Shown here piece by piece: positions 5,375 to 5,926 of a stretch of DNA of 37,415 nucleotides. The DNA is from Fidelibacterota bacterium (GTDB taxonomy: Bacteria; Fidelibacterota; Marinisomatia; Marinisomatales; TCS55). The stretch is from assembly GCA_012964665.1 (NCBI GenBank), contig DTTO01000022.1, positions 1 to 37,415 on the forward strand. The letters are read 5' to 3'. The position numbers were made by a program, and so were the translations under genes. The stretch's first letter is position 1, and each line of letters starts with the position of its first letter. Below the pieces are notes generated by a model, which was not told the origin of the DNA, did no database searches, and saw only the letters and a list, made by a program, of their open reading frames with translations.

Positions 5375-5926
5375 ATGATGGCTTGGATTAATGTAATAAA
5401 TGAAGAAAAAGCAACTGGTTCGTTAAATGATCAGTATAAAAATTTAATAGAGCCTTGGGGTGGTGTGGATAATATTCTAAAGATTCACAGTCTAAATCCT
5501 GAGTCGTTGGATGCTCATGTTCGGCTGTATAAAATGGCCATGTATGGTAAATCGAGCGTCCAGAGGCGTGAGAAAGAAATGATTGCGGTTGTGGTTTCCA
5601 CTATTAATCAGTGCCATTACTGAATAATTCACCATGGAGAAGGTCTTCTCAAACTCACAAAAAATAAAACATTGGTCAAACAATTAAAGTCCGATTATAA
5701 ACTGGCAGATATCACACCTCAACAGATGGCTATGCTGGATTATTCTGTTAAACTCACTGAGCGTCCCGGGGATATGATCTTGGAAGATGTGGAACGCCTT
5801 AAAGATGCAGGTTTCAATGATCGTGCAATTCTAGATATTAACCAAATTGTAGCTTATTTCGCCTACGTCAATCGGGTAGCCGATGGACTAGGTGTGGAAC
5901 TGGAAGATTTCTGGGAAAAGAAATAA
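5375..5926 (+). CDS. AhpD-like / peroxidase-related carboxymuconolactone decarboxylase family protein; predicted selenoprotein with in-frame TGA (Sec) at 5621-5623
   Basis: ORFs 5375-5623 and 5672-5926 are in the same frame with no other stop between them. Read-through gives ...EKEMIAVVVSTINQCHY[U]IIHHGEGLLKLTKNKTLVKQLKSDYKLADITPQQMAMLDYSVKLTERPGDM..., matching the AhpD-like NxCxYCxxHHGE active-site pattern with TGA in place of the second Cys. Confidence 0.9.
5637..5650 (+). promoter_or_regulatory. Candidate bacterial SECIS hairpin
   Basis: GAGAA-GGUC-UUCUC: perfect 5-bp stem with tetraloop beginning GG. The stem starts 13 nt after the TGA and the loop is about 18 nt after it, a spacing expected for bacterial SECIS. 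Confidence 0.7.

What the first reader, a model, noticed from the sequence alone, without database searches (positions are those of the whole stretch)
5375..5926. Probable selenoprotein: AhpD-like protein with in-frame UGA at the second active-site Cys
Seen: two ORFs in the same frame, separated only by TGA at 5621-5623, read through as NQCHY[U]IIHHGEGL with a coherent downstream AhpD-like sequence. The downstream fragment has no ATG start (only an internal TTG), so it is not an independent gene. Knowledge: AhpD/CMD-family proteins have a C-x-x-C...H redox motif, and TGA sits exactly where the second Cys belongs, giving CxxU. AhpD-like selenoproteins have, to my recollection, been reported in marine metagenomic surveys. 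Inference: this is Sec insertion. TGA acts as a normal stop elsewhere in the window (e.g. 7259-7261, 9403-9405), which argues against a reassigned code. A standard annotation would truncate or split this gene.
Basis: partly seen in the sequence, partly recalled or inferred. Interest (0 to 1): 0.88.

Follow-up and report, generated by a model that had tools for sequence, protein, structure and literature searches.

The report
Selenocysteine AhpD-like peroxidase gene
The gene is a real selenium-containing antioxidant-type enzyme (AhpD-like, CxxU) from an uncultured marine bacterium whose genome carries the full selenocysteine machinery; it belongs to a selenoprotein family described from ocean metagenomes since 2005, so it is genuine but ordinary.

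Summary
One reading frame (5378, or 5375, to 5926) is broken only by TGA at 5621-5623, and the read-through protein is an AhpD-like "peroxidase-related enzyme" (TIGR01926, 151.5 bits against a cut-off of 81.8). The TGA sits at the second residue of the CxxC motif. The same genome (a Neomarinimicrobiota relative) encodes tRNA-Sec(UCA), SelA, SelB and SelD, and SelD itself has an in-frame TGA at its Sec site. A 42%-identical paralog in the same genome has TGA at the same codon. In 81 related genomes, 31 homologous reading frames each have one internal stop, always TGA, and five more distant homologs have TGC/TGT there. Purifying selection is equally strong on both sides of the TGA. TGA is a normal stop elsewhere in the window. 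A hairpin with SECIS geometry follows the TGA, but it is weak (-4.1 kcal/mol) and fails the published energy threshold. The family "AhpD-like, TIGR01926, CxxU" is already catalogued (Sargasso Sea 2005, GOS 2008, 2026 review). This is a new member of a known kind. The least described aspect is its conserved place at the head of an amino-acid/amine-catabolism-like gene cluster.

The parts
5368..5371 (+). Shine-Dalgarno-like AGGA
   Evidence: sequence; 6 nt before ATG 5378, 3 nt before ATG 5375
5378..5926 (+). AhpD-like (TIGR01926 peroxidase-related) selenoprotein gene, including stop TAA 5924-5926; alternative start ATG 5375
   Evidence: homologs start at MAWI
5576..5578 (+). Glu68 codon, proton-relay Glu (position of M. 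tuberculosis AhpD Glu118 / PA0269 Glu36)
   Evidence: spacing and near-invariance; mechanism from PMC3141380
5612..5614 (+). Cys80 codon TGC, first residue of the CxxU motif (resolving Cys)
5621..5623 (+). TGA = Sec83, second residue of CxxU, position of the peroxidatic Cys (Cys133 of M. tuberculosis AhpD)
5633..5635 (+). His87 codon, proton-relay His (His137 / His55), invariant in 121 aligned proteins
5637..5650 (+). SECIS-like hairpin: 5 bp stem, GGUC apical loop 5642-5645, 18 nt after the UGA; meets geometry but not the energy limit of the published bacterial model
   Evidence: model from PMC13188914
5945..7261 (+). APC-type amino acid permease, next gene of the probable operon
   Evidence: PF13520; directly after the Sec gene in L013/L049, L014, L015, L016/L050, L017, L018, L036 and L054
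7254..8525 (+). M20 peptidase/ArgE-DapE family deacylase, same cluster; directly after the Sec gene in L051, L053, L056
8506..10631 (+). arginine deiminase/DDAH-like gene and GcvT-like aminomethyltransferase, same cluster

Best explanation
The gene encodes a full-length AhpD-like selenoprotein of 182 residues with a C80-H-Y-U83 active site (numbering from ATG 5375). The UGA at 5621-5623 is decoded as selenocysteine by SelB and Sec-tRNA(UCA), helped by a SECIS-like hairpin 18 nt downstream. By homology, Sec83 is the attacking nucleophile that reduces a peroxide (or another oxidised substrate), Glu68 and His87 relay the proton, and Cys80 resolves the selenenic acid as a selenenylsulfide that a cellular thiol or dithiol reduces. 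Shown by computation: the reading frame, family, conservation of TGA or Cys at the site, the Sec machinery in the genome, and selection on both halves. Inferred: Sec insertion in the cell, peroxidase activity (about 0.65 likely), the order of catalytic steps, the reductant, and a role in protecting or serving the downstream amino-acid/amine catabolism cluster. The confidence given is for the selenoprotein claim.
For: TIGR01926 at 151.5 bits against a cut-off of 81.8. Same genome: tRNA-Sec 68.8 bits with anticodon TCA, SelB 359 bits, SelA 513 bits, SelD 398 bits with one in-frame TGA at its own Sec site, SHGSGUACK. A paralog at contig C44 is 42% identical and has TGA at the same codon. In 81 related genomes, 31 frames in 23 genomes have exactly one internal stop, a TGA, at this codon wherever examined; five distant homologs have TGC/TGT. 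All 23 have SelA or tRNA-Sec over cut-off. Six nearly complete reduced genomes of one family lack both and have no TGA form. Among 120 database homologs, 54 have Cys at the site, 57 W and 2 G, as gene callers using codes 4 or 25 would print TGA. dN is 0.010 before and 0.013 after the TGA against dS 0.108 and 0.298 in the closest independent relative. Glu68, Cys80, Tyr82 and His87 are invariant in the 41-sequence alignment, at the spacing of the AhpD proton relay (PMC3141380). Model pLDDT 96, best PDB match 3c1l, TM about 0.90.
Against: The hairpin after the UGA has a minimum free energy of only -4.1 kcal/mol, not better than shuffles, and fails the -7.5 limit of the published model. Covariation in it is slight, and synonymous-site constraint there is not significant (22 of 168 windows as low). 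No experiment shows Sec insertion or peroxidase activity. Some AhpD/CMD-fold proteins do other chemistry, for example the debrominase Bmp8.
Confidence: 0.97

Rival explanations
1. The TGA is a sense codon through a reassigned genetic code (UGA = Trp or Gly), not selenocysteine.
For: Public gene predictions on short contigs print W (57) or G (2) at this position.
Against: TGA ends 7 of 25 main ORFs of the window. Trp or Gly would destroy the CxxC site, where homologs have Cys. The genome has the whole Sec machinery.
Confidence: 0.01
2. Pseudogene or assembly error: a real stop mutation that truncates the protein.
For: A standard annotation gives two fragments.
Against: TGA at the same codon in an independent 97%-identical genome, in relatives down to about 40% identity, and in the paralog. 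Low dN on both sides. No other stop types in the 31 TGA-bearing frames; only one, in G041, is split.
Confidence: 0.01
3. The UGA is used as a selenium switch: at low selenium it stops translation and gives an 81- to 82-residue product, at high selenium the full enzyme; the truncated form might have its own role.
For: The SECIS-like hairpin is weak, which would allow inefficient read-through.
Against: Nothing seen points to an independent role of the N-terminal product (not tested directly). The truncated product lacks the conserved His87 and half of the fold.
Confidence: 0.05
4. It is a selenoprotein but not a peroxidase: a selenol-disulfide oxidoreductase or reductive enzyme for a metabolite of the neighbouring catabolic cluster. 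(This competes with the functional half of the best explanation only, not with Sec insertion.)
For: Conserved linkage to APC permease, M20 deacylase, ADI/DDAH-like and GcvT-like genes. AhpD-fold proteins with other chemistry exist, such as the debrominase Bmp8, TM about 0.79. No AhpC gene lies beside it.
Against: The full AhpD proton-relay residues are conserved.
Confidence: 0.3

Closest known systems
AhpD-like selenoprotein family (COG2128/TIGR01926, CxxU): Sargasso Sea study 2005 (PMC1088965) and GOS study 2008, 'AhpD-like 1' (PMC2398784); listed with MCB9421940.1 in PMC13188914
   Same: TIGR01926 membership, CxxU motif with Sec at the second position, marine bacteria, Cys homologs widespread
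   Different: nothing essential; this member has a weak SECIS-like hairpin and leads an APC/M20/ADI/GcvT-like cluster
AhpD of Mycobacterium tuberculosis and PA0269 of Pseudomonas aeruginosa (AhpD-like peroxidases)
   Same: Glu-Cys-x-x-Cys-His proton-relay residues at the same spacing; Tyr in the PA0269 variant position; related all-helical fold (PA0269: 2ijc, 2o4d)
   Different: Sec replaces the second (peroxidatic) Cys; no ahpC next to it; reductant unknown
Mlr4105 of Mesorhizobium loti (PDB 3c1l) and 2pfx
   Same: closest solved structures by sequence (E 2e-31, 6e-30) and by fold (TM about 0.9)
   Different: Cys at the Sec position; function of these not tested here
AhpD-related CFYUT (seleno)protein NF041238 and arsenosugar-associated TIGR04169
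   Same: related CMD-fold proteins; NF041238 is named for a CFYUT motif and listed as CxxU
   Different: far below their cut-offs here (53.7 against 175 and 22.8 against 120 bits)

Membership tests
TIGR01926 peroxidase-related (AhpD-like) family | score above the curated cut-off of 81.8 bits | tested here: met
   151.5 bits, residues 3-175 of 183
AhpD-like selenoprotein, CxxU (COG2128/TIGR01926) | in-frame UGA at the second residue of CxxC, Cys in homologs | tested here: met
AhpD-like selenoprotein, CxxU (COG2128/TIGR01926) | genome encodes SelA, SelB, SelD and tRNA-Sec | tested here: met
Bacterial SECIS element (PMC13188914 Fig. 2A) | 3-9 nt apical loop, 4-16 bp upper stem, G in the first two loop positions, 16-37 nt from the UGA | tested here: met
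   5 bp stem, GGUC loop, 18 nt
Bacterial SECIS element (PMC13188914 Fig. 2A) | minimum free energy of -7.5 kcal/mol or lower | tested here: not met
   -4.1 kcal/mol; the review notes that some putative elements fall outside the model
AhpD-type peroxidase | proton-relay residues Glu, Cys, His/Tyr, Cys (here Sec), His at conserved spacing | tested here: met
   Glu68, Cys80, Tyr82, Sec83, His87
AhpD-type peroxidase | peroxidase activity, or reduction of AhpC | not testable with these tools
   needs purified Sec protein
Selenoprotein | selenium in the product | not testable with these tools
   needs 75Se labelling or mass spectrometry

The most novel reading that the evidence does not exclude
The Sec-AhpD is a dedicated redox partner of a conserved amino-acid/amine scavenging cluster (APC permease, M20 deacylase, arginine deiminase/DDAH-like, GcvT-like demethylase, CrtO/CrtI-like flavoproteins). 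It would either detoxify peroxide made by the flavoproteins or take part in the chemistry of the substrate, which would give this selenoprotein family a pathway context.
Probability: 0.25. Interest if true: 0.45.

Novelty: new member of a known kind. Interest (0 to 1): 0.22.

Why it matters
It confirms that this marine lineage makes selenoproteins with a complete SelA/SelB/SelD/tRNA-Sec set; in a 2016 survey some SAR406 single-cell genomes were listed as having only an orphan SelD (PMC5029168; SAR406 is an older name for the Marinimicrobia, from my own knowledge). It also shows how gene callers misread such genes: public proteins of this family carry Trp or Gly at the Sec site, or are split. 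The conserved neighbourhood offers a testable lead on what AhpD-like selenoproteins do. The basic finding is not surprising to specialists.

Tried and rejected
Code reassignment was rejected because TGA is used as a stop in 7 of 25 ORFs and homologs have Cys. Pseudogenisation was rejected by conservation and dN/dS. Rfam and ARAGORN on the window found nothing, so the tRNA-Sec is elsewhere in the genome. SECIS as strong independent proof was not obtained: weak energy, no better than shuffles, slight covariation, non-significant synonymous constraint. Synonymous-codon shuffles gave a mean z of -1.4 for 47 TGA genes against -0.1 for five Cys genes; this is suggestive only, because the genes are related (some loci are the same genome fetched twice) and the Cys set is small. 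Database homologs with Leu, Arg or Ser at position 83 (P0027, P0029, P0050) are singletons with residues reachable from TGA by one base change; they are read as errors or rare losses, not followed further.

Full report
Observation. The window has one frame from ATG 5375 (or 5378) to TAA 5924-5926, interrupted only by TGA at 5621-5623. Read through with TGA as U it gives a 183-residue protein (182 from the second ATG) with the motif C80-H-Y-U83 followed by H86-H87. The second ATG (5378) is the better start, because AGGA at 5368-5371 is 6 nt upstream of it and the nearest database proteins start MAWI. The downstream half has internal ATGs but none near its beginning. TGA is the normal stop of 7 of the 25 main ORFs of the window.

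Family. The read-through protein matches Pfam CMD (40.7 bits against 23) and NCBIfam TIGR01926, 'peroxidase-related enzyme', with 151.5 bits against a cut-off of 81.8. The closest solved structures by sequence are 3c1l and 2pfx. An AlphaFold2 model (Cys in place of Sec) has mean pLDDT 96 and matches 3c1l with TM about 0.9.

Sec machinery. The window's genome (75 contigs, 1.59 Mb, 75.6% complete) has a tRNA-Sec with 68.8 bits and anticodon TCA, SelB (359 bits) and SelA (513 bits), adjacent on contig C35, and SelD (398 bits). The SelD frame has one TGA, at SHGSGUACK. Two AhpC/TSA peroxiredoxins of the genome also have one in-frame TGA each, at PGUT. Close relatives in named collections are Candidatus Neomarinimicrobiota genomes (L049 is 97% identical).

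Conservation. In the window's genome plus 80 relatives, 30 genomes have a homolog. In 23 of these, 31 frames carry exactly one internal stop, always TGA, and the codon aligned to position 83 is TGA in every one examined; the five genomes with a more distant homolog covering the site and no stop have TGC or TGT. Homologs from records titled Chloroflexi, Acidobacteriota, Actinomycetota, Acidimicrobiales and Gemmatimonadota also have TGA. All 23 genomes with the TGA form have SelA or tRNA-Sec above the cut-off. Six small, 92-98% complete genomes of one family (G053, G063, G069, G074, G077, G080) have neither above the cut-off and no TGA form. A paralog in the window's own genome, 42% identical, has TGA at the same codon. 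Among 120 listed database proteins, 54 have Cys at the position, 57 Trp and 2 Gly; Trp and Gly are what gene callers using codes 4 or 25 print for TGA (inference). Against the 97%-identical relative, dN/dS is about 0.09 upstream and 0.04 downstream of the TGA; dN stays low on both sides in more distant relatives, where dS is saturated. A pseudogene would not show this.

SECIS. The hairpin at 5637-5650 (5 bp, loop GGUC, 18 nt after the UGA) meets the size, G and spacing rules of the bacterial model quoted in PMC13188914 but not its -7.5 kcal/mol limit; the fold is -4.1 and no better than shuffles. Across 21 related genes, 85.7% of cells pair against 28-72% for slid partners, with one pair changed on both sides. 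Synonymous variation in codons +4 to +10 is lower than the gene mean but not significantly (0.457 against 0.555; 22 of 168 windows as low). Codon-shuffle z-scores average -1.4 for TGA genes and -0.1 for Cys genes. The element is plausible but is not independent proof.

Mechanism. In M. tuberculosis AhpD and P. aeruginosa PA0269 the relay is Glu118/36, Cys130/48, His132/Tyr50, Cys133/51, His137/55 (PMC3141380). The same spacings here give Glu68, Cys80, Tyr82, Sec83 and His87; Glu68, Cys80, Tyr82 and His87 are invariant in 41 aligned sequences. Sec thus replaces the second motif Cys; that this is the peroxide-attacking one is established knowledge of AhpD, not tested here. A selenol there, deprotonated at neutral pH, would be expected to speed peroxide attack (inference). 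The reductant and the true substrate are unknown.

Neighbourhood. The Sec gene is followed after 18 nt by an APC permease, then an M20 deacylase, an ADI/DDAH-like gene, a GcvT-like gene and two CrtO/CrtI-like flavoprotein genes, most overlapping end to start. The permease follows the Sec gene in L013/L049, L014, L015, L016/L050, L017, L018, L036 and L054; in L051, L052, L053 and L056 the M20 gene follows directly. The paralog group lies just downstream of another APC permease in L002, L026, L028 and L029. This suggests, but does not show, a link with uptake and breakdown of an amino acid or amine.

Known or new. The family is listed as 'AhpD-like protein, TIGR01926, CxxU' in PMC13188914, from the Sargasso Sea study (27 sequences, CXXU; PMC1088965) and the GOS study (AhpD-like 1, COG2128, CxxU, 299 sequences; PMC2398784). 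The finding is therefore real, correctly interpreted, and a new member of a known kind.

Noticed in passing
L047 (SelD), L075 and L076 (AhpC/TSA family), L002 (AhpD paralog), all in the window's genome: At least four more genes of the genome carry an in-frame TGA at a catalytic position: SelD (SHGSGUACK), two peroxiredoxins (PGUT) and the AhpD paralog (CYYU).
   Followed up: partly
window 5945-13764: Conserved cluster behind the Sec gene: APC permease, M20 deacylase, ADI/DDAH-like, GcvT-like (best-scoring model TMAO demethylase, C-terminal part), two CrtO/CrtI-like flavoproteins; two homocysteine S-methyltransferase-like genes follow on the opposite strand (13840-15682).
   Followed up: partly
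P0002-P0121 (database homologs): Public protein sets contain this family with Trp (57) or Gly (2) at the Sec position, evidently from gene calls with codes 4 or 25; single entries with Leu, Arg or Ser may be one-base errors that let a frame be called.
   Followed up: partly
L040 (G041:C20:2721-3261): One distant homolog is split into two pieces with a gap between them in addition to its TGA; possible decay or assembly error.
   Followed up: no
genomes G053, G063, G069, G074, G077, G080 (family f15): A family of small genomes (0.8-1.0 Mb) in the same order appears to lack SelA and tRNA-Sec, and has no TGA form of this gene.
   Followed up: no
window 31978-33246: MenA-like prenyltransferase with an N-terminal PAS domain, which looks like an unusual fusion.
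   Followed up: no
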